A stretch of 64,000 bases of DNA, from contig NZ_CP084631.1 of the NCBI RefSeq assembly GCF_022878925.1, forward strand, positions 62,001 through 126,000. Direction: 5' to 3'. The notes under the pieces are model-generated. The model had not been told where the DNA came from. It saw only the letters and a list, made by a program, of their open reading frames with translations, and did not search any database. The position numbers were made by a program, and so were the translations under genes. Positions 2,073 to 24,867 of the stretch are shown one piece after another. Within the stretch, counting starts at the first letter, position 1. Each line of letters opens with the position of its first letter. Source of the stretch: Caballeronia sp. TF1N1 (GTDB lineage Bacteria > Pseudomonadota > Gammaproteobacteria > Burkholderiales > Burkholderiaceae).

Positions 2073-2477
2073 GGCGTTGTCAAGTTGGTGGGCCGGTCGC
2101 GTAAGATGGCGTGATGAAGAAACCGAAATCGCTCTATCACGGTCACCGTTTTCCAGCCGAGGTCATCAGTTGCGCCGTGCGCTGGTATTTCCGCTTCCAG
2201 TTGAGCTTGCGTGACATCGAGGAACTGCTCTTCGAGCGCGGGGTGACCGTGACATACGAGACGATTCGTTGCTGGTGCGACAAGTTCGGCAAGGGCTTTG
2301 CTCATGGGATGAAAGCGGTGCGACGCAAGCCAGGTAGCACGTGGCACCTCGACGAGATGTTCGTCACACTGCGTGGCGAACCGTACCTGCTGTGGCGTGC
2401 GGTCGACGAGCACGGCGCCGGACTCGACATCCTGCTACAAAAGCGGCGCGACAAGGCCGCAGCCAAACGGTTCTTTA
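2073..2477 (+). mobile_element. IS6-family element, left part only
   Basis: Starts with GGCGTTGTCAAG, an IS6-type terminal sequence, directly at the break in the SDR gene, and continues into an IS6 transposase frame. It is cut at 2477 by a second IS6-family element. The right end is not found downstream of that element. Confidence 0.7.
2114..2477 (+). pseudogene. IS6-family transposase, N-terminal part
   Basis: About 120 residues of an IS6/IS26-type DDE transposase. The N-terminal helix-turn-helix (SLRDIEELLFERGV, then TIRCWC) and the first catalytic aspartate in WHLDEMFV are present. The frame is interrupted after AAKRFF by the inverted repeat of the next element at 2478. The second Asp and the Glu of the DDE triad are missing, so it cannot be active. 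Confidence 0.85.
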
Positions 2478-3282
2478 GGCTCTGTCGCATTAAGACGATC
2501 TGCTATCGTAGCGCCCGGAAAATGAAAGACTTGATCGACGATGACAACGGACAAGGTGTTCAAACGGTTGCACTATCCGCTGGATGTGATGCTGACTTGT
2601 GTGCGCTGGTACGTGGCCTATCCGCTGAGCCTGCGTCATCTGGAAGAGATGATGGCCGAACGAGGCGTATCGGTCGATCATTCGACCGTGCATCGCTGGG
2701 CCATCAAACTCCTCCCGGCGCTGGAAAAGGCGTTTCAACGTCACAAACGCGGAGTCGGTAGAAGCTGGCGAATGGACGAAACCTACGTGAAGGTCAACGG
2801 GGAGTGGAAGTACTTGTATCGTGCCGTTGATAAAGCGGGCGATACAGTTGACTTTCTGTTGCGAGCCAGGCGCGACAAGGTTGCCGCGCGGCGTTACTTC
2901 GAGAAAGCCATTGATGAAAACGGTGTTCCGGAGACGGTGACGATCGACAAGAGCGGCGCCAATCTCGCGGGGCTACATGCGATTAACGCCGAACGCGAAA
3001 CGTCAATTAAGATTCGTCAGGCCAAGTATCTGAACAACATCGTCGAGCAGGACCATCGAGCTATCAAGCGGCGCATTCGTCCAATGCTGGGATTCAAGAA
3101 TTTTCGTTGCGCCCGCATCCTGTTGAGCGGCATCGAAGTCATGCACATGATTAAAAAAGGGCAGATGATGTGTCGCGACAGCACTGCGCGGACTGCAGCT
3201 GAGCAGTTCTATACATTGGTGGCATAAGCAGTACTCAAGATATCACCTCCGCTTGGCCCAACCTCCTTATTGCGACAAAACC
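2478..3282 (+). mobile_element. Complete IS6-family insertion sequence, about 805 bp
   Basis: Left end GGCTCTGTCGCATTAAG and right end (reverse complement) GGTTTTGTCGCAATAAG form the imperfect terminal inverted repeats expected for IS6/IS26 elements, and enclose one transposase gene. The 8-base flanks (GTTCTTTA left, CGTTGCCG right) do not match, so there is no target duplication. This fits a cointegrate or adjacent-deletion history in which the rest of the older IS6 element was lost. Confidence 0.88.
2541..3227 (+). CDS. IS6-family transposase
   Basis: Full-length 228-residue IS6-family transposase, close to the usual 230-240. In order: HTH region (SLRHLEEMMAERGVSVDHSTVHRW), first catalytic Asp in WRMDETYVKV, second Asp in TIDKSGAN, and Glu in VEQDHRAIKRR. 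The C-terminus follows the family pattern (GFKNF, GIEVMHMI). It lies 63 bp inside the left inverted repeat. No frameshift is seen, so it may be active. Confidence 0.93.
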   Translation: MTTDKVFKRLHYPLDVMLTCVRWYVAYPLSLRHLEEMMAERGVSVDHSTVHRWAIKLLPALEKAFQRHKRGVGRSWRMDETYVKVNGEWKYLYRAVDKAGDTVDFLLRARRDKVAARRYFEKAIDENGVPETVTIDKSGANLAGLHAINAERETSIKIRQAKYLNNIVEQDHRAIKRRIRPMLGFKNFRCARILLSGIEVMHMIKKGQMMCRDSTARTAAEQFYTLVA

Positions 3283-6351: not shown

Positions 6352-7299
6352 ATGGCTGCCCGCTCGATTGCGTCGCTGACGCTCAGTTTTGGCCTTGTAT
6401 CCGTACCCGTTAAGGTCTATACCGCGACCGAAAGCAAGACAGGGGTCGGCTTCAACCTAATGCACAAGGATTGCGGCACCCGGCTTAAACAGCAATACGT
6501 CTGCCCCCACGATGGCAAAGTCGTCGAGCGCGCCGACATGGTCAAGGGCTATGAATTCGAGAAAGAGCGGTACGTGATTTTTGAGAAGTCGGAGCTTGAC
6601 GCACTTGAGGCCAGCGCGAGCCACACCATCGATATCGTGTCCTTCATGCCCACCGAGGCAATCGACCCCATCTATCTTGACAAACCCTACTATCTCGCCC
6701 CCGACAAACGCGGCGGCAAACCGTATCGCCTTCTACAAGAGGCGATGAAAGATAGCGGCACCTGCGCTTTAGCCCGTTGGACGTGGAAGGGGAAGCAGCA
6801 TATGGTGCAGATTCGCGCCGGCAGCGACGGTTTGATTCTTCAGACCTTGCTTTATGCCGATGAGGTTCGCTCCCAGGCCGATATCGGCATCGACCAACCG
6901 GAAATCCAGCCGACGGAGCTGCAGCTTGCCGAGCAGTTGATTGAGCAGTATCGCGTCGACAGCTACGACGCGGCAGCGTACAAGGATGAGGAGAAGGAAC
7001 GAATCCTTGCGGAGATCGATAAAAAGATTGCGGGCAACAAAATCACCGCCGTGCCAGCCGTCGAGCAGCCCGGCGCGCAGGTCATCGACCTTGTAGAAGC
7101 TTTGCGGGCCAGCTTGAAGAAAAAAGCAACCGCGGTACAGCCGGCAGCGGCACCGCGCGCTGTACGAAAGACAGCCCGAGCGGCCGAACCGGAGCCGGAA
7201 GTGGCAAACCAAACCGCGGCCACGAAGCGCCGCTCGGTTCGCCGCGCGTCCAACGAAGTTCAACCCGCACCTGCACGCAAGACCGGCACGAAGAGGTGA
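6352..7299 (+). CDS. ku: Non-homologous end-joining protein Ku
   Basis: A 315-residue bacterial Ku homodimer subunit that would bind double-strand DNA ends and recruit LigD. The start ARSIASLTLSFGLVSVPVK is the classic N-terminus. The core beta-barrel, the KGYEFEK.RYV segment and SFMPTEAIDPIYLDKPYYL are conserved, followed by a Lys/Arg/Ala-rich C-terminal tail (from about 245) of the kind that binds DNA and ligase. It is followed after one base by the HTH-TPR gene, so the two are probably cotranscribed. The LigD gene downstream is broken, so its partner must be encoded elsewhere or is lost. Confidence 0.95.
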   Translation: MAARSIASLTLSFGLVSVPVKVYTATESKTGVGFNLMHKDCGTRLKQQYVCPHDGKVVERADMVKGYEFEKERYVIFEKSELDALEASASHTIDIVSFMPTEAIDPIYLDKPYYLAPDKRGGKPYRLLQEAMKDSGTCALARWTWKGKQHMVQIRAGSDGLILQTLLYADEVRSQADIGIDQPEIQPTELQLAEQLIEQYRVDSYDAAAYKDEEKERILAEIDKKIAGNKITAVPAVEQPGAQVIDLVEALRASLKKKATAVQPAAAPRAVRKTARAAEPEPEVANQTAATKRRSVRRASNEVQPAPARKTGTKR

Positions 7300-8225: not shown

Positions 8226-8579
8226 TTACGAAGTGTGTACTTGAGCTTTCTTAACAGCGTCAAAGCCGTCCGTAGCATCGAACAGCGATACCGATATTTC
8301 TTTGACGAGCCTCGCTTGGCACTCAGGCGTAAGGTGCTCGCGACGGCCAAACTGTTCGACGGCTGCCCGCAGGCTTTCCGCGGCCGTCCCGCCGTCTATG
8401 GAGTCGATCTTGCCAGCGTGAAAAACCGTGGCGATACCATGACTGCGCAGAATCCGGGCAAAGTCGCCCAACTGTGAAGGAAGGTGCGGCGCAGACTGCT
8501 TGCTCGCAAGCTCTCTCTCCAGACGCTCGATTTTCTCGGCCATAGCCTGAACCGCAACTGATTCAGCTTGTGTGCTCAC
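8226..8579 (-). CDS. Hypothetical coiled-coil protein, third gene of small operon
   Basis: A 117-residue frame opening with GTG at 8579 (VSTQAES) that overlaps the end of the previous gene. The start is supported by the overlap, although an internal ATG at 8543 is possible. Residues about 10-30 (AMAEKIERLERELASKQ) look like a coiled coil; the rest is soluble. Family not recognised. It is the last of three minus-strand genes that appear to form one operon. Confidence 0.5.
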   Translation of the reverse strand: MSTQAESVAVQAMAEKIERLERELASKQSAPHLPSQLGDFARILRSHGIATVFHAGKIDSIDGGTAAESLRAAVEQFGRREHLTPECQARLVKEISVSLFDATDGFDAVKKAQVHTS

Positions 8580-8853
8580 GTTTTTTTGTTTCCTTTGGGT
8601 TGGATCGCAAGCGAATCGCACGTGCCGCTGCTCGAATCCGTTTTGCCGCGCCATGCGGGGTATCGCACACCGCAGTCCAGTCATGGTGCCACCACTGGAT
8701 GACTTCGGCCGCTTCATTCAACGAACGCGCAGCGACCACCTCGCGAACTTCGTCCGCGACTTCATTCCACCATGCCGAACTTTCACCCTCGCTCGCGCGC
8801 GGATCGACAGCGTGGCGGTAGATTGTCTTTGCGGCTTCAAGTGCGATCGCCAT
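8563..8853 (-). CDS. Hypothetical protein, middle gene of small operon
   Basis: 96 residues from an ATG with AGGATAAC upstream. It is helical and Trp-rich in the middle (SSAWWNEVADEVREVVAARS, then QWWHHDWTAVCD) with a basic C-terminus. It starts 12 bp after the stop of a 41-codon membrane gene and overlaps the next gene by 17 bp, a tight operon arrangement. No family recognised. Confidence 0.5.
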   Translation of the reverse strand: MAIALEAAKTIYRHAVDPRASEGESSAWWNEVADEVREVVAARSLNEAAEVIQWWHHDWTAVCDTPHGAAKRIRAAARAIRLRSNPKETKKREHTS

Positions 8854-10256: not shown

Positions 10257-12175
10257 TCAGTCGTGCCCAACCGCCCGTCGCATGGCAGCCGTGATACCTT
10301 GGCGCGTTCTGAAAAAACCGTCCCAAGGATCCGCCGACAGAGTTTGGACGCGTTGCGCAGCATTCTGGATGGTCCACTGGTCTGCCGCCCTGACACTCTC
10401 GAGCTCTTCCCAGGCGATCGGCATTGATACGCCAAGCCCGGGTCGGGCGCGCGCCGAGTACGCCGCCGCCGTGCTGGCGCCCTTCCCGTTGCGAAGATAG
10501 TCAATGAAGATCTTTCCGACTCGATTTTTTGGGCCGAGGACAGCAGAGAATCGCTCGGGCATGAGGCGCGCCATGTAGCGCGCGACGGCGCGCGAAAAGG
10601 CTTTGACTTCGTTCCATTGCTGTCGGCGGGTCAGCGGCACGACGATATGAAAGCCCTTGCCACCGCTTGTCTTGATAAAGCTTTTGAGTCCGATCTCATC
10701 GAGCAGCACCTTGGACAGCTTCGCGGCGTCGACCATCATCTGCCACGGCAGCGCCGGGTGAGGGTCCAGATCAAGGATGAAACGATCAGGATGATCGAGG
10801 TCTGGCTGAACAGCGTTCCAACTATGCGATGACGTTCATCTGAGCGAGGCCGATCAGTGCTTCATGTTGGTCCACAACAAGCAACGGTGAATGTGTCGCG
10901 TGATGCCGGGGATCTTGGAACGCTCCTCGTGCTTCTGGAAGAACATTTCGGATTTGATGCCTTCGGGCGCGCGCACGAGCGATATCGGTCTGTCCTTGAG
11001 GTAGGGCAAGGCAAACTCGGCGATCGTATCGTAGTAGCGAACGAGATCGATTTTGGTGACGCGCGTCACGTCGTCAATGACGCGCTCGGCATTCGACACT
11101 TTCACGCCGGCGACGATGAGATTCCCGCTGCGGCCGGGAGTGCTGCGGCTCGCGCCTTTGCGTAGGCTCTGGCTTTTCGGCTTCTCTATGTCGACTACCG
11201 TCTCTTCGGTCACGGTATTGGCGGACTTGTCATCTCGCATGCCATGAAAAACCGGGTGACGAACCTCACCCGCAGGCGTCCATTCAAGGAACGATGCTTC
11301 CACAACGAGCTCGGGCTCGATCCATACGAAGTCGCGATCCTTCTCGCGCTGCGGCGGGTTATAGAATGGCGGATCTTGCCGAACCAGCACGCGCGCTCTC
11401 TCTTCGAGCTCGGCTAGTGGGCGCGGTTTCAACTCTGCCTTCACGGTCCCGGCGAAACGCAAGCTACCGTCTCGCTCGTGCACTCCGACCATAAGCGACC
11501 GTATGCCAGCTTTAGCACCGGCGAGACGCGTATAGCCGCCCACGACGAATTCCTGCCTGCTCAGGCATTTGAGCTTGATCCAAGCCGTCGAGCGACCGGA
11601 GCGATAAGGCGCATCGGCGCGCTTGCCGATAATCCCCTCGAGCCGCATTTGGCACGCCGATGCGAGCAAGGATTGCGGATCCTCATTGAACGACTCGCTG
11701 AAGCGGACGCGCTCGCTCGGGGTCCGGGCGATCAGTTCGCCCAGCAATTGCCTGCGCTGCGCGAGTGGTAATGCCCGTAGGTCGCGCCCGTTCAGAAACG
11801 GAATGTCGAAAGCGAAGAATGTAAGTTGTGCCGTGCTGCGGCGGTCGAACGCATTTTGAAGCGCGTTGAAGTCTGGAACGCCGCTTTCGGTGAGTACGAC
11901 GACTTCGCCGTCAAGCCATGCATTATCGACTGGTATCGCCTCGATCGCGTTCGCAAGCGCGGGCATCTTGTTCGTCCAATCGTGCCCGCCTCGCGTAATA
12001 AGCTTTACGCGCCCGCTATCGAGCCTGCACATCAGACGATAGCCATCAAACTTGATCTCATAGGACCATTCGCCATTCGTAGGCGGACGCTTGCGAGCGT
12101 CGCGAGTTGCGGGGCGATCGACTCGGGAAGTACGGCACTCGATGGTGCACGGGAGGGCACGGATAGTTTCGCCAT
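10257..12175 (-). pseudogene. ligD: DNA ligase D, frame-broken (ligase and polymerase domains)
   Basis: LigD joins ends held by Ku. The ATP-dependent ligase domain is readable: the adenylation motif EIKFDGYRLMCR carries the active-site Lys, followed by DGEVVVL, FFAFDI, EGIIGKR and WIKLKC. The primase-polymerase domain then begins (LIVAGVKVSNAERVI). Three breaks are visible: near 12095 (IAPQLATLA reads in one frame, RPPTNGEW in the next), near 10890 (after EERSKIPGI) and near 10825, where an in-frame TAG and another shift precede PDRFILDLDPHPALPW. The C-terminus is recovered to 10257. No N-terminal phosphoesterase domain is seen. It is almost certainly non-functional unless the assembly has errors. 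Confidence 0.88.
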
Positions 12176-12193
12176 TCGTTGGGCGAGATCGTC

Positions 12194-12382
12194 TCAGAAC
12201 CCTACGCCTACGCCGACACCACCTCCGCCTCCGAACCTGCCGCCTCCTACGCCCACGCCGATGCTGGGACCGGGCGCATAGTAGCCGGGGCCGTATGCAG
12301 GATCCTCGTAACCATAAGGGGGCGCGGATACGCATCCGGAGGACGCCGCCACAAGCGTCACACTGAAAAAAAGTCTGAGCAT
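12194..12382 (-). CDS. Small Gly-rich exported protein, possible lipoprotein
   Basis: 62 residues. A hydrophobic signal segment (MLRLFFSVTLVAASSGC) ends in a cysteine with a weak lipobox (SSGC). The rest is Tyr/Pro/Gly-rich, then a pure glycine/valine tail (GVGVGGGRFGGGGG). Such small surface lipoproteins are common in Burkholderia. The gene ends just before the LigD remnant on the same strand. Function unknown. Confidence 0.6.
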   Translation of the reverse strand: MLRLFFSVTLVAASSGCVSAPPYGYEDPAYGPGYYAPGPSIGVGVGGGRFGGGGGVGVGVGF

Positions 12383-13058: not shown

Positions 13059-14369
13059 CTACGCCGCTTCTGCAAAGAGATTGAGTTGCCTCGCGTCATA
13101 GCCTAGCAACTGGTCGTGGACCGTATCGCTGATCGCATGAGCAACAAGATGCGCGTCGAGGTCGGCGGGCGTCATGTTCAGACGCTGCGCGAGCCGCGAG
13201 AAGTACTGCCCGCGCTTTGCCATCTCCTGATACCGCTGGGCCATGCCAGTCGGCAACTTCACGATGCCCTCGTTCAGCCAAAAATGCGCTGAGTCGATTG
13301 CGTCGCGATGCTGCGTGTCCAGCATGCACGCGGTGTCGTAGGTGCAGGTGACGAACAAGCATGCTGCTTGCGCATCGACGTCGAACTGCGAAGTCTCCTC
13401 GAAATACACCGTCTGCTCGCCGCCGGTCGTCCGCGCATATCGCCCAGGGCGACCTGGATGCCGGTACGGGTTCCACTGTTCGGCGTCGAAAGAGCGCAAT
13501 CCAGTTGCAGGCGCGTCCTTGTCGTACTGCCCGACTGGATACCAGCCGTGCAACACGATATCAGCCTTAGGCAGCGCTTCTAGCTTCGAGACCGGATAAC
13601 GACGCCCCAGCACATTGACGTCGTGCCAGACAGCGAGCGCGGGAAACGCATGCGGCGCGTAGTGATGCATCGACAGAAAGAAGTCGATGGCCACCAGTTG
13701 CTGCGGCGTCACGAACTCAAACTGCGGCTCGCACAGCATCCGATTTTCTTCAGTGTCAGGAATCAACCCGGTCGCCAGTGCACCGGAGTGCGCTTCGGCA
13801 CGATCACGCTCGACCGCGTCGATACTGCAGAGCTTCTTCAGCAAATCGACTCGCGTTAGATAGCTGTAAGTGTCGGCCTGGATGCGCGTGTACCCTGCAT
13901 TGCTCAACGAGCGCCCCACCAACTCCCGGCGCGACATATCCCACTGGATCGCAAGTAGATAGTTGCGGAAGTCGTTGAGCGGTCGAAGATGCCCGTACTG
14001 CTCATCCTCGATCATGGCCTCAAGCGACTTGTCGCGGTCGCCAGAGACAAGACAAATCGCGCACCCAAAACGACTCCCACAGGAAGCCCTGGCACCCGAG
14101 TCGCCTACCACCACGCCGCACGTTCCTCCGTTCCCCGCCCGGTAAATGTCGGACAGACGATGAATCGTGCGAGGCATCAATGGCGATCGAAAAGTCAGGT
14201 CCTGCCCGTCGGCCAATAGCGCGAGCATGGTCCACACATCATCTGAAGTCCAATCGCTCAGCGGTGAAAGTGTGAGCGCCCCGGTTCGGCTTCTGACCGC
14301 ATCTTCAGCGCTGTCTCGCCGTTCTGCCATCGCGACCGCACGCGAAGTACTTTCGTCAAAGCCAATCAC
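13059..14369 (-). pseudogene. DndC-like PAPS-reductase-family protein, N-terminus lost
   Basis: 436 readable residues of a phosphoadenosine-phosphosulfate-reductase-family ATP pyrophosphatase. The region after the P-loop domain is present: GFDESTSRA, then SPLSDWTSDDVW, then four cysteines (about residues 84, 97, 103 and 106 in GTCG...CGSRFGCAIC), a pattern fit for an iron-sulfur cluster as in DndC. The SGGKDS nucleotide loop that should open the protein is missing. Upstream, MAVTL-stop-RAAVDVIGFDES shows a TGA in the former coding frame. Thus it is probably a dead remnant. No dndB, D or E partner is seen nearby. The role, DNA sulfur modification or another sulfur transfer, is inference. Confidence 0.6.
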
Positions 14370-15177: not shown

Positions 15178-15414
15178 TTAGCCGTCGTTATCCGCCGTGA
15201 CAGGCACGATGTTGAAGTCCCCCATCGCGTTGTACATGGTCACGTCGGTATAAGGAAGGTCGTTGTTCGCGATATACGTCGCAAGCGTGACCGTCTGGTC
15301 CCACGTGAAGTTGAGAGCCTTCTCGGCAGCCCAGTACACAACGAATTCGATTGCTTTGTCGACCAACCCTCCGCCAGAGACCGCGGAATATTCTGACACT
15401 TCAAGCGTCTGCAT
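15178..15414 (-). CDS. Double-glycine-leader bacteriocin/microcin-like precursor
   Basis: 78 residues. The N-terminus MQTLEVSEYSAVSGG fits the double-glycine leader rule: with cleavage after Gly15, Leu4 is at -12, Glu8 at -8, Val12 at -4 and Gly14/Gly15 at -2/-1. The 63-residue product starts GLVDKAIEFVVYWAA, an amphipathic helix-like stretch, has no Cys, and ends in an acidic tail. TTGGAGAAAAACA supports the start. A C39-peptidase ABC exporter cluster lies upstream on the same strand, now separated by an IS copy at 15545. Function as an antimicrobial or signal peptide is inferred. Confidence 0.7.
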   Translation of the reverse strand: MQTLEVSEYSAVSGGGLVDKAIEFVVYWAAEKALNFTWDQTVTLATYIANNDLPYTDVTMYNAMGDFNIVPVTADNDG

Positions 15415-15544
15415 TGTTTTTCTCCAAGTAAAGTTACGACTAGTTGCAAAGGACTACGAACACATAAAGTGATCGAGGTCAAGTGCTCTTGATGAGCCGC
15501 CCTTCCAGGGTAGCCCCGTATTTTGCGCCGACGGATAGGTCTAG

Positions 15545-16877
15545 CAGGCTGTTGAAATACCCTTTGCGCGGTCATCCGTGCGTAAGGGAGAGACGTTGAT
15601 TTAAAGAATTCGACGACACAGAGACAGAAGCGATGCGCGGCCCCGACAGCTACACTGAATCGATGTTCACGATGTCCAGACTGGACGATTTCGTTCCGGC
15701 CAATCATCCGCTGCGACCGATTCGCCTGTGGCTGAACGAGGCGCTCAGGCGCATGGACGAGGTGTTTTCGCGCATGTACGAGAGCGAGGCCAAGGGCGGT
15801 CGCCCGAGCATCGCGCCGGAGAAACTGATACGCGCGCTGTTGTTGCAGGTGTTGTATTCGATTCGCAGCGAACGCATGCTGATGGAGCAAATCTCCTACA
15901 ACATGCTGTTTCGATGGTTCGTCGGACTGGCGATGGATGATGCGGTCTGGGACCACTCTACCTTCAGCAAGAACCGCGACCGGCTGATGGTCCACGATGT
16001 CATGGTCAGCTTGTTCAACGAGACTGTCGAGACGGCGCGCGTGCAAGGTCACCTGTCGGGCGAGCACTTCAGCGTCGACGGCACGCTCATTCAGGCGTGG
16101 GCGGGACACAAGAGTTTCGTGCCCAAGACAAAGTCGGATGACGATTCGCCGCCTGAGGGCGGAGACGGCTCGCAGGAGAACTGGCGCGGCGAGAAACGCA
16201 GCAACGACACCCATGAATCCAGCACGGACAGTCAGGCGCGCTTGTTCCGCAAGAGTCGTGGCACGGGCGCGGTGCTTTGTTACATGGGTCACGTGCTGAC
16301 CGATAATCGGCATGGTCTCGTGGTCAACGCACAGGTCACGCAGGCCAATGGCACGGCCGAACGGGATGCGGCCGCGCAGATGCTGCGGATGCTGCGCAAT
16401 TTGCCGGTACGACCATAACGGTCGATGCTGACAAGAACTACGATACGGCGGGCTTCGTGGCGACGTGTCGCGAGAACAACGTGACACCGCACGTGGCGCA
16501 AAACGATGCACGCGCGGGCGGTTCCGCGATTGACGCTCGAACCACACGATGGCCAGGCTATGCAATCAGTCAGTGCAAACGCAAACGCATCGAGCAGGTG
16601 TTCGGATGGGCAAAGACCGTTGGCAGAATTCGGCAGGCGATGTATCGAGGTCTGAAGCGAGTCGACCAGCTCTTCGTGCTCACTCAGGCGGCGTACAACC
16701 TCACTCGCATGCGAACGCTTGCTGCTAAGGCAGCTTGAAAGAGTAAGCGAGAAGGAACGCGGCATCGGCGGCATCTGAATCAAGGAGAATCGGCGTCAAT
16801 TTATTTGGAACATTCCAACGCGCTAGCTCTTCCGAATAATCGAGCCCACGTTCATTGAGGCATATTTCAACAGCCTG
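15545..16877 (+). mobile_element. IS5-like element, copy 1 (defective)
   Basis: Ends CAGGCTGTTGAAATA and, as reverse complement, the same sequence form perfect terminal repeats. It is nearly identical to the copy at 23534-24867 but one base shorter. Flanks are CTAG (left) and CTAA (right), near the CTAR-type target of IS5 elements but not an exact duplication. It lies between the CPBP gene, whose stop codon abuts its right end, and the peptide gene. Confidence 0.92.
15633..16738 (+). pseudogene. IS5-family transposase, frameshifted
   Basis: Same protein as the intact copy at 23622-24728, but one T is missing near 16383 (CAGATGCTGCGG against CAGATGCTTGCGG). The frame leaves the true sequence after AQML and stops at 16418. 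The C-terminal part with the last catalytic Glu resumes in another frame (ORF 16457-16738). A second difference changes GTCGGT to GTCGAT. The product would lack two DDE residues. Confidence 0.9.
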
Positions 16878-17468
16878 CTAAGCGTTTCTCAGAAAGAATA
16901 GCGAGGAGTTGTAAAGGGAGTGGACCACTATTGTTGTCGCAATCGGCCGCCCATCTTTTCTCGCTTCAATCACAAACGTCGCGGCGAAAACAACTCCGCC
17001 GAAGATCGCCTTTGCAAGGAGCCTTCCTTCAAGGCCGTGAGCCACGCCGAAAATCAACGCGGAGCATGAAGCTGCGATGAGATACGGCATCCTCAACCAC
17101 TTTTTACCCGCTCGTATTGGCGCCCACTGAAAAACCATGGTCTCCACGATTGGTGCCAATATGCACACTACGAGCGGATTGGTGGCCAGGCGGCTGGGCG
17201 GTAGAGCCCGCGCTACCGCTGATGCTCCGAACAGCGCATCTGCGATCGACTCAATCATATATTGTGCGACGTACAAAACCGAGATAGCGGCCACGACGAT
17301 GCCCCCACGCGTAGCGACCGCGGTCCTTGTAGAGTGCGATACGTAGGGTACCGATACGATGTAGCCGAGGTGCCCTGCCCACCTGCGGTACATCCGCCGC
17401 AGGGTCGATGTCGCAACGGAACTGGCAGTCGTCGGAGTCGGCTCGCCGTTGATGACTCGTCGTGGCAT
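16878..17468 (-). CDS. CPBP-family intramembrane protein
   Basis: 196 residues with several membrane helices. ATG 17468 has an ideal ribosome binding site (AGGAGGAACATTT). CPBP/CAAX proteases use EExxxR, FxxxH and HxxxN. Here motif 1 is altered to VETMVFQ (one Glu, 109), motif 2 is FGVAHG (His144) and motif 3 is VVHSLYN (His183, Asn187). Homologues act in bacteriocin immunity or peptide maturation, which fits the double-glycine peptide and exporter beside it. The altered motif 1 may mean reduced or no proteolysis. The IS5 copy starts exactly after the stop codon. Confidence 0.75.
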   Translation of the reverse strand: MPRRVINGEPTPTTASSVATSTLRRMYRRWAGHLGYIVSVPYVSHSTRTAVATRGGIVVAAISVLYVAQYMIESIADALFGASAVARALPPSRLATNPLVVCILAPIVETMVFQWAPIRAGKKWLRMPYLIAASCSALIFGVAHGLEGRLLAKAIFGGVVFAATFVIEARKDGRPIATTIVVHSLYNSSLFFLRNA

Positions 17469-17494
17469 AAATGTTCCTCCTGTTGCAAAGTAGG

Positions 17495-18472
17495 CTACGA
17501 ATCCAGCACACATGCAGATAGGCCCGACGCTGCTAGTAGAATTTCCCGTACGTCCTGCATTTCCTCATCGCTGAGAGTCCAGCCTCCAGCAGCTGCATTC
17601 GTTGCAACTTGCGCAGGGGAGCTTGCTCCGGCGATGACGCAAGGAACCACAGAGTTTTTCAGCAACCAACCGAAGGACAGCTCGATGAGGGATCGTCCCC
17701 TTGATGCTGCATACTCACCCAGCCGTCTAACCCTGTGAAAGTTTGCCTCTGTAACGTACCGCTCAGCTATGTGAGGTGAAGACTTCAGGCGGGAGCTCGC
17801 GGGTAGAACGTAGCGGTCCAGATGCAGACCGGTGAGCATGCCGCCGGCAAGTGCCAGGAAAGGCAGGAGGGCTCCACCGGCATCGGCCAGCTCCGCTAAA
17901 TCGCTGAAAAGGAGGGGAGCGGGACTGAGTAGGCTGCATTCCGCTTGGAGCGAGACGAAGCGTTCACGTCCGGTAGAGCGCGCTTTGACCAATCTAGACA
18001 AAAAGGGTTTATTGCCAATGTTGCAGTAACCAAGGTAGCGAACTTTCCCGCTACGAACCAATCGCTGTAGTGTCTCGTCCGTCTCATCCAGAGAGTCGAG
18101 ACCGGATGGCCCATGTAGCTGGTACAGATCAATGTAGTCGGTGCCCAGTCGTTTGAGACTGGCTTCAAGCGATTCTTCTATGAAACGTACGGGCGACAAA
18201 GGGGCTCGCGCGGTGGGAAGCAACCCTCGTCCGAACTTCGTCGCAACAAGCACATTTTTTCTGTTGCTACCAAGGACTTCTCCAAGAATTCGCTCAGAGC
18301 TTCCGGCGTGACCGTAGACGTCAGCAGTATCGAAGAAGTTAACGCCTTCGTCGAGCGCTGCGCGAATCACACGGGCCGCGTTGTCAGGCGGAATGCGGCT
18401 TCCGAAGCCGTTGCATCCGAGGCCTATCACTGACGTGTGAAGGGAGGATTGACCGAGGCGTCGCGTTTGCAT
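17495..18472 (-). CDS. Aldo/keto reductase
   Basis: A 325-residue NADPH-dependent reductase of the AKR fold. The catalytic tetrad is visible: Asp48 in NFFDTAD, Tyr53 in DVYGHAGSSE, Lys79 in ATKFG and His120 in YQLHGP. The cofactor-binding C-terminal part (SFGWLLKNSVVPCVIAGASS) is complete. It follows the TolC-like gene by 19 bp and ends 27 bp before the CPBP start, so it appears cotranscribed with the peptide exporter. An AKR is unusual there; it might modify the peptide or be a passenger. Confidence 0.88.
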   Translation of the reverse strand: MQTRRLGQSSLHTSVIGLGCNGFGSRIPPDNAARVIRAALDEGVNFFDTADVYGHAGSSERILGEVLGSNRKNVLVATKFGRGLLPTARAPLSPVRFIEESLEASLKRLGTDYIDLYQLHGPSGLDSLDETDETLQRLVRSGKVRYLGYCNIGNKPFLSRLVKARSTGRERFVSLQAECSLLSPAPLLFSDLAELADAGGALLPFLALAGGMLTGLHLDRYVLPASSRLKSSPHIAERYVTEANFHRVRRLGEYAASRGRSLIELSFGWLLKNSVVPCVIAGASSPAQVATNAAAGGWTLSDEEMQDVREILLAASGLSACVLDS

Positions 18473-18491
18473 GGTGGGATCTCGTGTCGAT

Positions 18492-19940
18492 TTACGGCTT
18501 AAGGGCGCCCAGCGCTTGCGCCAGCGTCGACCTCGATAGCTCGATCTGCTTTACTGCGTCCAGCGTCTCGAAGTTAGCGTTGGAGAAGTCCTCCTGGGCT
18601 TTTAGTACCTCAAGCGCGTCCCCCACGCCTGCTTTCAATCGACCTTGCGCAATATCAACACTCGCGCGGGCGACGGCTAGTAGGTCCTTTGCGGCATTGA
18701 GGCGTTGGACTCCGTTTTGCCAGCCTAGGTAAGATTGCCACGCGTCGAGTGACACATCGCGTTCAACCTTCTCCAGTTCCACCTGGCGACTGTACATGTC
18801 AGCGCGAGCGGCCTCCGCCTTCGCACGCTGGGAGAAACCATCGAAGAAGGGAATGCGCACCTGCACGACTGCCGATAATGCTGTCGTTCGTTGTGCCACC
18901 TGGTCACTAGGGAGAGCGTTGCTTCGACCTGACGAGAGTGCCAAAGAGATCGTTGGCAGTCCGCCGGCCGTTGCATATGCGACATTGCTTTCCGCTGCGG
19001 ACAACTGCGCGCGTGCCGCTTTGATGCGGGGATTCGCGGCGAGTGCATCGGTTACCACAGAGCGAAACTGGGATGGGTCCGTCAGCTCGACTGAATCTCG
19101 GCTCGGAAACTCGATCTGCAACGGGTCTGAAGGTGCGAATCCAACGAAAGAAAGAAGAGATGCCCGCGCCGCATCAACCGCACCACGGGCTTGGATAGTG
19201 TTCGCTCGTGCTCTCGCAACGTTACTTTCTAGAAGCAGCTTGTTCGACAATTGCCCGACGCCTGCGGCGTTTTGTGCTTGAGCCACAGCGAAGCTGGCTA
19301 TTGCAAGCTTTTCCGTTACCTCGTAGGCGGTAAGCGTCCCTTCCTTGCTTTCCAGATCATAGAAGCGCTTGGCCGTTTCGTGGAGTATTTCCTGGATGGC
19401 CGCGCTTCGACTGTCAATGGCGGCTTCGACTGAGAATTTTCCTGCCGACAGATTGCTGCTGCGAGATCCAAAGTCATACAAGAGCCAAGTTAGGTTGGCT
19501 TGCAGATTGTTTGTGTTCGCCCGGGTGCGCTGAGAAACGCCGATGTCAGTGTAGTCAGTATCCTTGCGCAGTTTCCCAACGTATCCGGATCCTTCAAGTT
19601 GCGGGTAATACGGTGCACGCGATTGCCTCTCGAACGCCTCGCTTCTCATGACCTGCGCCAGGGCGGCTTTCGCGTCCGGGTTGCGACAGAGCGCCGCGGA
19701 AGACAAAGCCGTGAGGGTCATGGGCGAGGGAACGGCTGCGTCGCATTCCCCGAATGCGCGAATTTCTGTCTCTATAGGCACGTTTTCTGGAAGCACGGTA
19801 TCAACGACAGCGCTATGCGCGGGTGCGGCTATCTGCGAAATAGCAATTGCGAAAGCAAACGAGACATAGCTGCTGACGCCTCTGCCCATGAGCGGCATCG
19901 ACATGGTCCGCCCTCGGGCCCTATGGGTGAGAACTGTCAT
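18492..19940 (-). CDS. TolC-family outer-membrane efflux protein
   Basis: 482 residues from ATG 19940, which overlaps the ABC gene's stop as ATGA. A signal peptide (VSSYVSFAFAIAISQIAAPAHSA) precedes two outer-membrane efflux repeats rich in long helices, with YDFGSRSSNL and FFDGFSQRAKAEAARA at the paired positions typical of TolC. It would form the outer-membrane channel for the C39 ABC exporter and the fusion protein upstream. Length and helix pattern are normal. A longer in-frame start at 20312 would overlap the ABC gene widely and is rejected. Confidence 0.9.
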   Translation of the reverse strand: MTVLTHRARGRTMSMPLMGRGVSSYVSFAFAIAISQIAAPAHSAVVDTVLPENVPIETEIRAFGECDAAVPSPMTLTALSSAALCRNPDAKAALAQVMRSEAFERQSRAPYYPQLEGSGYVGKLRKDTDYTDIGVSQRTRANTNNLQANLTWLLYDFGSRSSNLSAGKFSVEAAIDSRSAAIQEILHETAKRFYDLESKEGTLTAYEVTEKLAIASFAVAQAQNAAGVGQLSNKLLLESNVARARANTIQARGAVDAARASLLSFVGFAPSDPLQIEFPSRDSVELTDPSQFRSVVTDALAANPRIKAARAQLSAAESNVAYATAGGLPTISLALSSGRSNALPSDQVAQRTTALSAVVQVRIPFFDGFSQRAKAEAARADMYSRQVELEKVERDVSLDAWQSYLGWQNGVQRLNAAKDLLAVARASVDIAQGRLKAGVGDALEVLKAQEDFSNANFETLDAVKQIELSRSTLAQALGALKP

Positions 19941-22087
19941 GCGATATAGTCCCGTACGGGAGCGGTCGTTAGATCGTCCCCCATACGTGGGCCTCGCGCG
20001 ACGCGACTGAGATCCAAGATCCGGTCCGCAGAATCTATAGTTTCTTTCCGATGAGCAATAAATATCCGGGTGATCTGCATCCGACGGATGTTTTCGTTGA
20101 TCAGCTTTTCGTTGAGGGTATCGAGGTGGCTCGTCGCCTCGTCTAACAAAAGGATCTTGGGCTTTTTGTAGAAGGCTCGCGCTAACATGATCCGCTGTTT
20201 CTGACCGCCCGATAGGCCCGAGCCTAGATCGCCGATGAGGCTCCTGTATCCCATCGGCATGGCGACAATCTCGTGATCCATACGGGCCATCGCGGCACAC
20301 TCTTTCATCCATGCGCGGTCCGGAGTTGGATCGAAGAATGTGATGTTTTCTTCGATGGTGCCTGCGAATAGGGAGTCGTCCTGGAGCACCGCACCGATCA
20401 TGTTACGCGTCTCGTCAAGGCCGATGTCGGAAACAGCGACGCCGCCGATACTGACAGATCCCGAGGTCGGCGAATAAAGCCCCAGCAGGATGTTGGCTAG
20501 CGTCGACTTACCGCATCCAGATGGGCCGACGATGGCTACGGACTCGCCCGAGCGGATCGACGCACTCACGCCGCGGAGGACATACGGGTCGCTGGGCGAG
20601 TACTGAAACGATATGTCCGAAAGTTCGACAGAGTATTCATTGAGCTCGTGGGAAGAATATGGGCCTGATCCAACGGTGGTTTCCGCGGGGGTATGCACGA
20701 TGTCAGACAGCCGTTCCATTTGAACGTGAAGGAGCCTGAATTCAAAAAACCTGTCGATGACGGAGGTTACCTTGGCGTCGAACTGATTCTTGTACGATAT
20801 GTAAGCGACAAGAAGGCCGACCGAGAAGGTGTGGTCGAGGACAAGCTTAGCGCCCACCCATATGACCATGATGTTCTCAATAGCAGAAAGCAGCGAGTTC
20901 GCGGAATGGTATGCGATACCGAGCTTCTGTATCCGCAGGCTCGCGTTGACCTGGTTGACCAGCAGCGAGAGCCAGATATTCGTTCTTGAGGCTTGGCGGA
21001 CAAAAAGCTTGATGGTCTTGCTGCCTCGCACGGACTCGAGGAAATGACTCGCTGACCGGGCAGAGTGGATAGATTCCTCCATAGTGGAGTCGCGCAACGG
21101 CCTGTAGCGGAGAAATCTCCCGAGAGCATAGACGAGCATGAAGCCGATCGGTATTGCGGACAGCTTGGCACTGTATAGGAGCATCAGTGCGCAGGTAACA
21201 AGCGCGACGCATCCGTCGATAATCCCGGTTACGAGGGAGAGGGTAACCGTGCTTTGTATTGCGTCGACGGTCCCGAAGCGAGACACGATATCGCCCGCAT
21301 GGCGCCGTTCGAAGAACTCGGCTGGCAAACGAATAAGACGAGCGAAGACGTTTGCTTTCCATTGCACGCTAAGGGACGTACCGAAGTACATTACGGCCCA
21401 ATATCTTGCGACAACGATAAGTTGCTGGATGAGCGTGAGTATTATGTAACCTATAACCAGGACGGTGAGGAGGTCCGCGTCCGAGGCGACGAGCACATCG
21501 TCGATCACTACCTGTGTCAAGAGCGGCAGGAGCAGGGCCATAATCTCTAGACATGCCGCCATGACGAATATCTGTGCGAGCGAGCGGCGGAGACCAACCA
21601 CCGATCCCCATAAGGATCGTATCGATATTGACTCGGCTTTTTCTCGCTTCTCGAACAACGGGGAGGGCCAAAGCTCTAAGGCGACACCCGTAAACCGCTG
21701 AGAAAACTCATCTCTGCTTATGCGCCGTTGACCGACGGCCGGGTCAAGGATGGTAAAACCCCTAGGAGTGACCGACTTCAGTACGACAAAGTGATCGAAA
21801 TTCCAGTGGATAATCGCAGGAAGTCGAAGTTGACTCGCTTCGTCGATGTCGAGCTTCAACGGGCGGCTTCCCAGCTTTAGTTCGTCCGATATAGATATCA
21901 ACTGCCCAATGGTCGAACCCTTCAGAGACTGGGGGAAGCGCGACCGAAGAGACGAGAGCGTCGTTGCGTGCCCGAAATAGTTTGCGACTATGCCGATGCA
22001 TGCAAGTCCACACTCCGCAGCCTCTGTTTGTAGGATAGGTCGAAGACGGCGTGCAAATCCAAGATTGAGTACGTTAGAGAGATCCAT
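19937..22087 (-). CDS. Peptidase-containing ABC transporter (C39, bacteriocin export)
   Basis: A 716-residue exporter that cleaves double-glycine leaders and pumps the peptide out. N-terminal C39 peptidase: Gln20 and catalytic Cys26 in QTEAAECGLAC, His99 in WNFDHFVVL, Asp115 in ILDPAVG. A six-helix membrane domain spans about residues 160-440. The ABC domain has Walker A VGPSGCGKST, signature LSGGQKQR and Walker B ILLLDEATSHLD. All key residues are intact. The start overlaps the fusion-protein stop by one base. It resembles CvaB/RaxB-type proteins of colicin V secretion systems. Confidence 0.95.
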   Translation of the reverse strand: MDLSNVLNLGFARRLRPILQTEAAECGLACIGIVANYFGHATTLSSLRSRFPQSLKGSTIGQLISISDELKLGSRPLKLDIDEASQLRLPAIIHWNFDHFVVLKSVTPRGFTILDPAVGQRRISRDEFSQRFTGVALELWPSPLFEKREKAESISIRSLWGSVVGLRRSLAQIFVMAACLEIMALLLPLLTQVVIDDVLVASDADLLTVLVIGYIILTLIQQLIVVARYWAVMYFGTSLSVQWKANVFARLIRLPAEFFERRHAGDIVSRFGTVDAIQSTVTLSLVTGIIDGCVALVTCALMLLYSAKLSAIPIGFMLVYALGRFLRYRPLRDSTMEESIHSARSASHFLESVRGSKTIKLFVRQASRTNIWLSLLVNQVNASLRIQKLGIAYHSANSLLSAIENIMVIWVGAKLVLDHTFSVGLLVAYISYKNQFDAKVTSVIDRFFEFRLLHVQMERLSDIVHTPAETTVGSGPYSSHELNEYSVELSDISFQYSPSDPYVLRGVSASIRSGESVAIVGPSGCGKSTLANILLGLYSPTSGSVSIGGVAVSDIGLDETRNMIGAVLQDDSLFAGTIEENITFFDPTPDRAWMKECAAMARMDHEIVAMPMGYRSLIGDLGSGLSGGQKQRIMLARAFYKKPKILLLDEATSHLDTLNEKLINENIRRMQITRIFIAHRKETIDSADRILDLSRVARGPRMGDDLTTAPVRDYIA

Positions 22088-23229
22088 CACAGCTTCCCAG
22101 TAATGCTGTACAGGGGTTCGAGTGCCCACTCGTAGAGTGCTCGCTTGTCCTGGAAGACACTAGCTTCAACGGTCATACCGGCTTGTAAGGGAATGTCTGC
22201 TCCATATGCTCGGATCGCTTGACTGTTCAACCGAATCGAAACTCGGTACAGTGGCTCAGCCACTCTGCTGTCGCGGGGATCAGCGACAGCGGCACCTGGC
22301 AGTTCGGTCGCGGGAAGCGACGTTCGGGACACGTGCTGAACCGTACCTTGCAGCTGCCCAAACTTTTGATACGGATACGCAGGAAGCCGTACGAGGACCG
22401 TTTGGCCCGGCCGTATGAAGCCCACGCTGCTCGACAGCGCGTAGAGTTCAGCGATAAGTTCGTCGCCAGTCGGAATAATCGACGCGAGAGGCTTCGATGG
22501 GTCGGCCACCTGTCCTTTGTAGGCCGTTACCGTGGTAATGATCCCATCAACGGGGCTCCGTATCTGCAGGCCTCCTTTTGCTTCGTTCTCGGTGGATTCC
22601 TGTGTGGTTGTGCTTATAAGACGATCCAGCTGGGAGATGTCGTTTTTCACCTTTATCGCCGCCGTAGCCATTTCACTACGGCGAAGTGCCAGCTCTCTCG
22701 AAACGGTTGTCAGGTCTCGCTCAAGAGACCGCTTTCTGGTCAACTGATCTAGGTAGTCACCGCGCTTCTGCTGGTATTGCTCATTTGTGACGTAACCCTG
22801 TTTCACGAGCGAGGCGTAGGACTCAGCTAAGGCCGCGGCGGCACCTGACCGCTCAATTGCGACATCAAGAAGGGAATGTACTTCGCCGAGCTCGCGCTCA
22901 AGACTTCGAACGCGCTCAATCGCGCCCTGGTTGTCACGCTCGTAAATCTCTCTCACAAGCCGTCTCTCTGTCTTTGCCCTGTTGAGACGATCGTTGACTT
23001 GGGCCGCGACAAGTTCGGTCATTTCCCCTCCCGCGATGCGGCGGTCCGTTGACAACGTGAAAAGGGCTTGCCCTGCCTGAATCCGTGTCCCTTCTCCAGG
23101 CGGCATGTCGACAATGCGACCGGGCTGAGGAGCGAATACTTTAACCATCCCGCGTGAAGGCGTCAGTTGGCCGACAAGCTCCGTCCGGCGTGTGTACGAC
23201 TCTCGTGCTTCGGGCCGATCCGACAACAT
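22087..23229 (-). CDS. HlyD-family membrane fusion protein, damaged N-terminus
   Basis: 380 readable residues of a colicin-V-type periplasmic adaptor. SYTRRTELVGQLTPSRGMVKV and FAPQPGRIVD open the barrel/lipoyl part, long coiled coils follow (about residues 75-210), then the second lipoyl half (GLQIRSPVDGIITTV) and the C-terminal barrel. Missing is the single transmembrane helix that should precede SYTRR. Upstream, RFQCEMLSDRP resembles the pre-helix segment of such proteins but joins directly to SYTRR. So about 25-30 residues appear deleted and no proper start is seen. Export may therefore be broken. Confidence 0.75.
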   Translation of the reverse strand: MLSDRPEARESYTRRTELVGQLTPSRGMVKVFAPQPGRIVDMPPGEGTRIQAGQALFTLSTDRRIAGGEMTELVAAQVNDRLNRAKTERRLVREIYERDNQGAIERVRSLERELGEVHSLLDVAIERSGAAAALAESYASLVKQGYVTNEQYQQKRGDYLDQLTRKRSLERDLTTVSRELALRRSEMATAAIKVKNDISQLDRLISTTTQESTENEAKGGLQIRSPVDGIITTVTAYKGQVADPSKPLASIIPTGDELIAELYALSSSVGFIRPGQTVLVRLPAYPYQKFGQLQGTVQHVSRTSLPATELPGAAVADPRDSRVAEPLYRVSIRLNSQAIRAYGADIPLQAGMTVEASVFQDKRALYEWALEPLYSITGKL

Positions 23230-23354
23230 TTCGCACTGGAAGCGGCACCTGCTGCGCGCCTCACTTTATCGCAAACAACTCGCAGCCCGGTTCGTTGCAT
23301 GGCGCGAATTCGCCCAAAATCCGTCGACTACCTTCTGACCCGTCGTCGCACCTG

Positions 23355-23516
23355 TCATCGTGCCGGCTTGCACTCGGCAAGTTGACAACGCCTTTTCCAG
23401 TACGCCGGGATCGAGGCGAGCAGTGGACCGTGCACCGTGTGCCAATGCTCGTTGAACTGCTCGCGCGTGAGGTCTGGGCGGCGCTTGAGCAACGAGAATT
23501 TCTGAATCGTATCCAT
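23355..23516 (-). pseudogene. EthD-domain protein, N-terminal fragment
   Basis: About 40 residues of an EthD-type small alpha+beta barrel protein: KFSLLKRRPDLTREQFNEHW then HTVHGPLLASIPAYW, with the conserved His-Trp-His pattern. Homology ends after AYWK, where GGCGTTGTCAAC starts (minus strand, at 23392). That sequence resembles the end of the IS6-type element at 2073. A stop follows at 23355. EthD proteins serve in degradation and polyketide pathways, so this is a leftover of a catabolic operon. Confidence 0.75.
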
Positions 23517-23533: not shown

Positions 23534-24867
23534 CAGGCTGTTGAAATACCCTTTGCGCGGTCATCCGTGCGTAAGGGAGAGACGTTGATTTAAAGAATTC
23601 GACGACACAGAGACAGAAGCGATGCGCGGCCCCGACAGCTACACTGAATCGATGTTCACGATGTCCAGACTGGACGATTTCGTTCCGGCCAATCATCCGC
23701 TGCGACCGATTCGCCTGTGGCTGAACGAGGCGCTCAGGCGCATGGACGAGGTGTTTTCGCGCATGTACGAGAGCGAGGCCAAGGGCGGTCGCCCGAGCAT
23801 CGCGCCGGAGAAACTGATACGCGCGCTGTTGTTGCAGGTGTTGTATTCGATTCGCAGCGAACGCATGCTGATGGAGCAAATCTCCTACAACATGCTGTTT
23901 CGATGGTTCGTCGGACTGGCGATGGATGATGCGGTCTGGGACCACTCTACCTTCAGCAAGAACCGCGACCGGCTGATGGTCCACGATGTCATGGTCAGCT
24001 TGTTCAACGAGACTGTCGAGACGGCGCGCGTGCAAGGTCACCTGTCGGGCGAGCACTTCAGCGTCGACGGCACGCTCATTCAGGCGTGGGCGGGACACAA
24101 GAGTTTCGTGCCCAAGACAAAGTCGGATGACGATTCGCCGCCTGAGGGCGGAGACGGCTCGCAGGAGAACTGGCGCGGCGAGAAACGCAGCAACGACACC
24201 CATGAATCCAGCACGGACAGTCAGGCGCGCTTGTTCCGCAAGAGTCGTGGCACGGGCGCGGTGCTTTGTTACATGGGTCACGTGCTGACCGATAATCGGC
24301 ATGGTCTCGTGGTCAACGCACAGGTCACGCAGGCCAATGGCACGGCCGAACGGGATGCGGCCGCGCAGATGCTTGCGGATGCTGCGCAATTTGCCGGTAC
24401 GACCATAACGGTCGGTGCTGACAAGAACTACGATACGGCGGGCTTCGTGGCGACGTGTCGCGAGAACAACGTGACACCGCACGTGGCGCAAAACGATGCA
24501 CGCGCGGGCGGTTCCGCGATTGACGCTCGAACCACACGATGGCCAGGCTATGCAATCAGTCAGTGCAAACGCAAACGCATCGAGCAGGTGTTCGGATGGG
24601 CAAAGACCGTTGGCAGAATTCGGCAGGCGATGTATCGAGGTCTGAAGCGAGTCGACCAGCTCTTCGTGCTCACTCAGGCGGCGTACAACCTCACTCGCAT
24701 GCGAACGCTTGCTGCTAAGGCAGCTTGAAAGAGTAAGCGAGAAGGAACGCGGCATCGGCGGCATCTGAATCAAGGAGAATCGGCGTCAATTTATTTGGAA
24801 CATTCCAACGCGCTAGCTCTTCCGAATAATCGAGCCCACGTTCATTGAGGCATATTTCAACAGCCTG
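23534..24867 (+). mobile_element. IS5-like element, copy 2 (intact)
   Basis: Terminal repeats CAGGCTGTTGAAATA on both sides, 1334 bp, direct orientation relative to copy 1 at 15545-16877. Flanks TTAG and TTCG do not match. It sits right behind the 5' end of the EthD remnant. Two direct copies bracket the exporter genes from CPBP to the fusion protein. Confidence 0.93.
23622..24728 (+). CDS. IS5-family transposase
   Basis: 368 residues. The N-terminal DUF772-like region (RPSIAPEKLIRALLLQVLY, then SEAKGGRPS) is followed by a DDE domain: Asp in FSVDGTLI, Asp in GADKNYD, Glu in RKRIEQVFGW. Full length and without frameshift, so probably the source or intact sister of copy 1. Confidence 0.93.
   Translation: MRGPDSYTESMFTMSRLDDFVPANHPLRPIRLWLNEALRRMDEVFSRMYESEAKGGRPSIAPEKLIRALLLQVLYSIRSERMLMEQISYNMLFRWFVGLAMDDAVWDHSTFSKNRDRLMVHDVMVSLFNETVETARVQGHLSGEHFSVDGTLIQAWAGHKSFVPKTKSDDDSPPEGGDGSQENWRGEKRSNDTHESSTDSQARLFRKSRGTGAVLCYMGHVLTDNRHGLVVNAQVTQANGTAERDAAAQMLADAAQFAGTTITVGADKNYDTAGFVATCRENNVTPHVAQNDARAGGSAIDARTTRWPGYAISQCKRKRIEQVFGWAKTVGRIRQAMYRGLKRVDQLFVLTQAAYNLTRMRTLAAKAA

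What the first reader, a model, noticed from the sequence alone, without database searches (positions are those of the whole stretch)
15178..23229. Bacteriocin-type export cluster with an aldo/keto reductase and a CPBP protein
MFP, C39-ABC and TolC genes are coupled by overlaps; the AKR follows 19 bp later and the CPBP gene 27 bp after that, and a double-glycine precursor lies beyond on the same strand. C39 catalytic residues are intact. A Burkholderiaceae cluster with this gene order is not one I know as described, although I cannot search. The AKR and CPBP could modify, mature or protect against the peptide.
Basis: partly seen in the sequence, partly recalled or inferred. Interest (0 to 1): 0.85.

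Follow-up and report, generated by a model that had tools for sequence, protein, structure and literature searches.

The report
IS-damaged microcin-type export cluster
A small exported antibacterial-type peptide and its secretion genes sit together, but mobile elements have cut the start off one secretion gene and split the cluster; the peptide belongs to a very small, apparently undescribed family, while the unusual reductase gene was not found beside any related cluster examined.

Summary
The genes are real: MFP, C39 ABC transporter with its triad, TolC, AKR, CPBP and a double-glycine peptide, all on the minus strand. (1) The MFP has lost its N-terminus and membrane helix at a junction (23199/23200) with a 193-bp IS6-family remnant, so the exporter is probably dead as assembled. 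(2) An IS copy (15545-16877) separates CPBP from the peptide. (3) A second copy of that IS lies on the other side; both copies lack matching target duplications, unlike the genome's four other copies. The exporter is an ordinary class II microcin type (57 of 398 family genomes). The AKR is not part of a conserved set: beside 0 of 68 and 0 of 80 related exporters (sets overlap). The peptide is the interesting part. Best reading: a decayed microcin-like island with CPBP as candidate immunity and the AKR accessory or passenger. More widely, JmjC_2 oxygenases often accompany GG-leader peptides in this family, a pairing I did not see in the paper listings searched.

The parts
22087..23229 (-). MFP (HlyD family), N-terminally truncated: N-terminal part with the TM helix lost; homologous part begins about 23199
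   Evidence: HlyD_3 2e-20; relatives extend further; no TM helix; repeat junction at 23199/23200
19937..22087 (-). C39 peptidase ABC transporter (PCAT), triad and ATPase motifs present
   Evidence: Peptidase_C39 2e-33, ABC_membrane, ABC_tran
18492..19940 (-). TolC-family outer-membrane protein (ATG 19940 or 19904)
   Evidence: OEP 5e-49
17495..18472 (-). aldo/keto reductase; D48, Y53, K79, H120 readable as the tetrad (assignment recalled); best listed relatives 46-48 % identical
   Evidence: Aldo_ket_red 2e-54
16878..17468 (-). CPBP (Rce1-like) membrane protein, 196 aa; its TAG stop lies in the 4-bp flank of IS copy 1
   Evidence: Rce1-like 1.5e-08; ETxxxQ, FxxxH, HxxxN motifs
15545..16877 (+). 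IS copy 1 (same element as copy 2; transposase frame only 261 aa against 368); flanks CTAG/CTAA do not match
15178..15414 (-). double-glycine leader peptide, 78 aa, predicted mature part 63 aa with TMYNAMGDFN
23200..23392 (.). 193-bp terminal remnant of an IS6-family element abutting the MFP break
23393..23516 (-). 5' fragment of an EthD-domain gene, cut by the IS6 remnant; not part of the peptide system
   Evidence: EthD 1.2e-05
23534..24867 (+). IS copy 2, DUF772/DDE transposase 23622-24728; flanks TTAG/TTCG do not match

Best explanation
A horizontally acquired class II microcin-like island, now damaged by mobile elements. In the intact ancestor the precursor was cut after its GG leader by the C39 domain of the ABC transporter and exported through MFP and TolC as a roughly 63-residue anionic peptide; the CPBP membrane protein protected the producer. 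The peptide belongs to a very small family with a C-terminal TMYNAM(G/S)DFN block, whose other members lie in a JmjC oxygenase-peptide-CPBP cassette. The AKR is an accessory gene carried with the block: a lineage-specific tailoring or detoxifying enzyme, or a passenger. In this genome the MFP lacks its membrane anchor, so export by this exporter is probably lost. Shown: gene content, motifs, peptide homology, truncation, IS junctions. Inferred: acquisition by transfer, antibacterial activity, immunity role, loss of export.
For: Exporter components and triad. Related exporters in 57 of 398 family genomes, own included; my leader pattern gave GG peptides, mostly glycine-rich, at 23 of the 68 loci scanned, chosen by eye. 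Peptide matches in 3 of 299 family genomes: own, G217, G110, and 2 of 65 genomes of that genus. CPBP next to the peptide in G217 and next to its remnant in G110. In G102 the same locus keeps a CPBP 92 % identical to G217's while JmjC and peptide are gone, as expected of a retained immunity gene. CPBP fits the profile given for verified microcin immunity proteins: 51-216 aa, near the microcin, TM helices (PMC9746304, passages; 196 aa, three hydrophobic segments). GC3 of MFP, ABC, TolC, AKR and CPBP 0.56-0.65 against 0.69-0.76 for the four nearest flanking gene-like frames at 10854, 13059, 25219 and 26537. Truncation and IS junctions.
Against: No activity data. The mature peptide is acidic (net -7) and not glycine-rich, unlike most peptides seen beside these exporters. 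The CPBP tree does not join the window's CPBP to the cassette CPBPs (long branch). CPBP homologues occur in 28 of 398 family genomes, own included; of 19 of the 29 non-own places scanned within 1.5 kb, only G217 showed a believable GG peptide and G110 its remnant. In G217 the cassette lies more than 8 kb from the exporter, which has its own GG peptide, so the pairing is not exclusive. Three other MFP-like genes in the genome (E <= 1e-15) might in principle partner the ABC. Peptide gene GC3 is 0.73, higher than the rest of the block.
Confidence: 0.6

Rival explanations
1. The AKR is a true tailoring enzyme: this lineage has a reductase acting on the peptide where the sister cassette has a JmjC oxygenase, so the product is a modified microcin (RiPP).
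For: AKR sits in the exporter block with 19- and 26-bp gaps and similar GC3; tetrad residues are readable; the sister cassette carries an oxygenase; one related exporter locus (L120) has a radical SAM gene plus JmjC.
Against: AKR beside 0 of 68 and 0 of 80 related exporters, the two sets overlapping; no oxidising partner recognised in the cluster; AKRs act on carbonyl groups (recalled), which an unmodified linear peptide lacks in its side chains; best listed relatives are aryl-alcohol-dehydrogenase-like AKRs at 46-48 %.
Confidence: 0.12
2. CPBP is a maturation protease rather than an immunity protein.
For: Its family includes intramembrane proteases (recalled); FxxxH and HxxxN motifs are present.
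Against: First motif is ETxxxQ instead of EExxxR (consensus recalled); the C39 domain already supplies leader cleavage; in G102 the CPBP gene persists without the peptide.
Confidence: 0.12
3. The peptide and the exporter block are unrelated fragments brought together by IS-mediated rearrangement.
For: An IS copy with non-matching flanks lies between them; peptide GC3 differs from the block; in G217 cassette and exporter are more than 8 kb apart.
Against: The same combination of peptide family, CPBP gene and related exporter (ABC 46-48 % identical) lies within about 14 kb in G217 and within about 7 kb in G110, there with a peptide remnant.
Confidence: 0.2

Closest known systems
Class II microcin systems (colicin V/MccV type, CvaAB-TolC)
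   Same: GG/GA leader precursor, C39 ABC transporter with Cys/His/Asp at the spacing of CvaB Cys32/His105/Asp121 (73 and 16 residues), MFP, TolC, small membrane protein nearby
   Different: MFP truncated; TolC gene in the cluster; CPBP as candidate immunity; AKR present; peptide matches no other peptide found beside the exporters fetched; activity unknown
CPBP/Abi bacteriocin self-immunity proteins of Gram-positive bacteria (Kjos et al. 2010, seen only as a reference and in a citing passage of PMC8692603)
   Same: Rce1-like membrane protein near a GG-leader peptide gene
   Different: First motif ETxxxQ; Gram-negative setting; protection untested
JmjC_2 oxygenases (NO66, MINA, YcfD)
   Same: Domain of the partner enzyme in the sister cassette
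   Different: No match in the window's own genome at E <= 1e-15; substrate unknown
Aldo/keto reductases of the YghZ/AKR14, IolS, GSP69, Kv-beta group
   Same: Family and readable tetrad
   Different: 46-48 % to the best listed proteins; the only instance seen beside a microcin-type exporter here

Membership tests
Class II microcin system | Precursor with N-terminal leader ending in GG or GA | tested here: met
   MQTLEVSEYSAVSGG; criterion from PMC9746304 passages
Class II microcin system | C39 ABC transporter with Cys, His, Asp at homologous positions | tested here: met
   CvaB positions from PMC9746304 passages
Class II microcin system | Complete MFP | tested here: not met
   N-terminus and TM helix lost
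Class II microcin system | TolC channel | tested here: met
Class II microcin system | Cognate immunity protein | not testable with these tools
   CPBP fits size, place and membrane profile only
Class II microcin system | Antibacterial activity of the peptide | not testable with these tools
   no assay
CPBP (Rce1-like) family | Pfam profile above cut-off | tested here: met
   35.2 bits against 22.4
CPBP (Rce1-like) family | Protease motif EExxxR | tested here: not met
   ETMVFQ at 109-114; FxxxH and HxxxN present (consensus recalled)
Modified RiPP (AKR-tailored) | Tailoring enzyme conserved with precursor or exporter | tested here: not met
   AKR beside 0 of 68 and 0 of 80 exporters; none in the G217 cassette locus

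The most novel reading that the evidence does not exclude
The TMYNAM(G/S)DFN peptides are a new family of enzyme-modified microcins: the conserved C-terminal block is the site read or altered by a redox enzyme, a JmjC_2 oxygenase in Burkholderia and an aldo/keto reductase here, with a CPBP protein as immunity.
Probability: 0.1. Interest if true: 0.75.

Novelty: new variant of a known kind. Interest (0 to 1): 0.4.

Why it matters
If the peptide family is active, it adds a microcin type with a candidate CPBP immunity protein in Gram-negative bacteria and, in its sister cassette, a 2-oxoglutarate-type oxygenase as possible tailoring enzyme. The repeated pairing of JmjC_2 oxygenases with GG-leader peptides in Burkholderiaceae makes a microcin modification question directly testable. 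For this window itself the practical result is sober: the exporter looks broken and the AKR link is not conserved.

Tried and rejected
Conserved six-gene cluster: rejected. Window CPBP co-inherited with the cassette CPBP: not supported by the tree of 22 sequences, where the window's row is a long branch. Peptide motif as an exact DNA pattern in the named genome collection and in viral contigs: 0 matches each; the genome scan did not recover G217 or G110 either, so it is no proof of absence elsewhere. Viral scan with the peptide: no relative. Protein search with the peptide and with CPBP: only the window's own copies (limited to relatives sharing 5-residue words). CPBP in 399 genomes of the order at E <= 1e-6: own and three others, G020, G365, G541; no GG peptide was recognised near them by pattern or eye. 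Lost MFP N-terminus elsewhere in the genome: a whole-MFP query found other MFP-like genes but no orphan piece; a fragment of about 40 residues could have been missed. Promoter scan upstream of the peptide: none. Rfam and tRNA scans of the window: none. Plasmid collection, near mode: 14 records, the best place of each within the IS. Rows dropped by eye: the hits in L064, L091, L094, L100 and L109, extra hits in L070, L081 and L095, and a PIN-like frame in the window. Structure prediction of the peptide was queued and not finished, so no model is used. Literature: listings (top 20 or fewer shown where more papers matched; one search showed 8 of 27), passages of PMC9746304 and PMC8692603; no listed title or abstract start describes AKR or JmjC with GG-leader microcins. 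Absence holds only for those listings.

Full report
What is there. The minus strand carries, in order, an HlyD-family MFP (23229-22087), a C39-peptidase ABC transporter (22087-19937), a TolC-family protein (from 19940 or 19904 to 18492), an aldo/keto reductase (18472-17495), a CPBP/Rce1-like membrane protein (17468-16878) and, beyond an insertion sequence, a 78-residue peptide gene with a double-glycine leader (15414-15178). MFP/ABC and ABC/TolC overlap, TolC-AKR is 19 bp and AKR-CPBP 26 bp. The C39 Cys-His-Asp residues, Walker A/B and signature motifs are readable; the triad has the spacing (73 and 16 residues) of the CvaB positions named in PMC9746304 (passages).

Damage. The MFP is incomplete. 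Against related exporters its homology begins at residue 11-12, and in the 65 of 68 related loci where a start could be read the MFP carries 19-77 further N-terminal residues; starts were picked mechanically, so the numbers are approximate. The two relatives scored (L082, L104) have a TM helix there, and the window's MFP has none. An in-frame stop lies 14 codons upstream of its first ATG. The base next to the last homologous MFP base begins a 193-bp stretch (23200-23392) that recurs at 98-99 % three times on the same contig (and twice at 79-82 %) as the end of an IS6-family element of about 820 bp with a DDE_Tnp_IS240 transposase; at 23200 the three copies continue into the element while the window continues into MFP. 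Beyond this remnant is the 5' part of an EthD-domain gene. Two copies of another IS (DUF772/DDE) flank the block, 7,989 bp apart in the same orientation; copy 1 has a shorter transposase frame (261 against 368 aa) and lies between CPBP and peptide. The genome's four other copies, one of them interrupted, have matching 4-bp flanks (CTAA, CTAG, TTAA, CTAG); neither copy here does. The flanks therefore look rearranged. I conclude that this exporter is probably not functional as assembled.

Relatives. Related exporters are common: 57 of 398 family genomes at E <= 1e-140, own included. I fetched all 68 non-own places that one search listed. AKR: none adjacent, one at 34 % identity about 6.8 kb past TolC in L066. 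CPBP: 2 (L115, L116, that is G217 and G110). JmjC: 5 (L104, L115, L116, L118, L120). Among the best 80 exporters kept from the named genome collection: AKR 0, CPBP 0, JmjC 1 (L203, Delftia tsuruhatensis). The two sets overlap in genomes, and some loci are short contigs. GG-leader peptides, mostly glycine-rich, were seen at 23 of the 68 loci, chosen by eye from the pattern output.

The peptide. In 299 family genomes only the window's, G217 and G110 match; in the 65 genomes of G217's genus only G217 and G110; a three-row profile over the loci fetched by then found no further convincing member (next best E = 1). That genus is inferred to be Burkholderia, because a contig of a fellow member (G169, 562,655 bases) has the length of a named Burkholderia territorii contig. 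Window and G217 peptides are 38 % identical and share TMYNAMGDFN; no shuffle of 5000 reaches the score, also without that block. In G217 the order is JmjC_2 oxygenase, peptide, CPBP, with a related exporter (ABC 46 %) more than 8 kb away that has its own GG peptide. In G110 a deletion fuses the oxygenase to the end of the peptide and CPBP remains, about 2 kb from the exporter. In G102 the same locus keeps only CPBP, 92 % identical to G217's. A CPBP gene that outlives its peptide is what an immunity gene would do. Against this, the tree places the window's CPBP outside that well-supported clade, on a long branch, so CPBP may have been recruited separately; and CPBP homologues in 28 of 398 genomes are mostly without a recognisable GG peptide nearby (19 of 29 non-own places scanned).

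AKR. Its tetrad residues are readable and it shares the composition of the block (GC3 0.56; block 0.56-0.65; the four nearest flanking gene-like frames 0.69-0.76), so it probably travelled with the block. The best relatives listed from 5.8 billion proteins are 46-48 % identical, and those named are ordinary AKRs (only the 8000 candidates sharing most words were scored). Nothing conserved ties it to peptide chemistry.

Side finding. JmjC oxygenases related to P0002 occur at E < 1e-40 in 9 of 398 family genomes (18 at E <= 1e-15). Of these nine, a GG-leader ORF lies beside the oxygenase in five (G217, G192, G245, G073, G229) and one gene away, past a radical SAM gene, in G771; there is a fused remnant in G110, a broken frame resembling the G192 peptide in G088, and none recognised in G240. 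An exporter lies in the same fetched stretch for G217, G110, G192, G240 and G771, and an MFP start for G245; none was seen within the 20 kb fetched for G073, G088 and G229. The pairing deserves its own study.

Judgement. The ordinary part is the exporter; the damaged state lowers the value of this locus; the new part is a very small peptide family and its cassette. I rate it a new variant of a known kind, interest 0.4.

Noticed in passing
L104, L115, L120, L150, L152, L153 (and remnants in L116, L151): JmjC_2-type oxygenase genes repeatedly sit beside GG-leader microcin-like peptides in Burkholderiaceae; in L104, L115, L116, L120 and L153 a C39 exporter or its MFP lies in the same stretch, in L150, L151 and L152 none was seen.
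   Followed up: partly
L120:12516-14816: GG-leader peptide with a Cys/Pro-rich and acidic tail, a radical SAM gene and a JmjC gene near a C39 exporter.
   Followed up: partly
L253 (G102), about 8309-8806: CPBP gene kept at the cassette locus while oxygenase and peptide are replaced by about 390 bases of other DNA.
   Followed up: yes
L238: CPBP gene close to a frame that looks like a PAAR-type (T6SS) protein; the PAAR label is by eye, no call made it.
   Followed up: no
window 10854-12335 and 6352-7299: LigD-like frame whose primase-polymerase match stops after 54 of 254 profile positions, and a Ku gene on the same contig.
   Followed up: partly
window 2111-3227: Two overlapping transposase-like frames, the first beginning like the IS6-family transposase whose element remnant abuts the MFP; the second IS6-like by eye.
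   Followed up: no
window 13059-14369: 436-residue frame without a Pfam match at E 0.01; it reads like a PAPS-reductase/sulfurtransferase-type protein by eye only.
   Followed up: no
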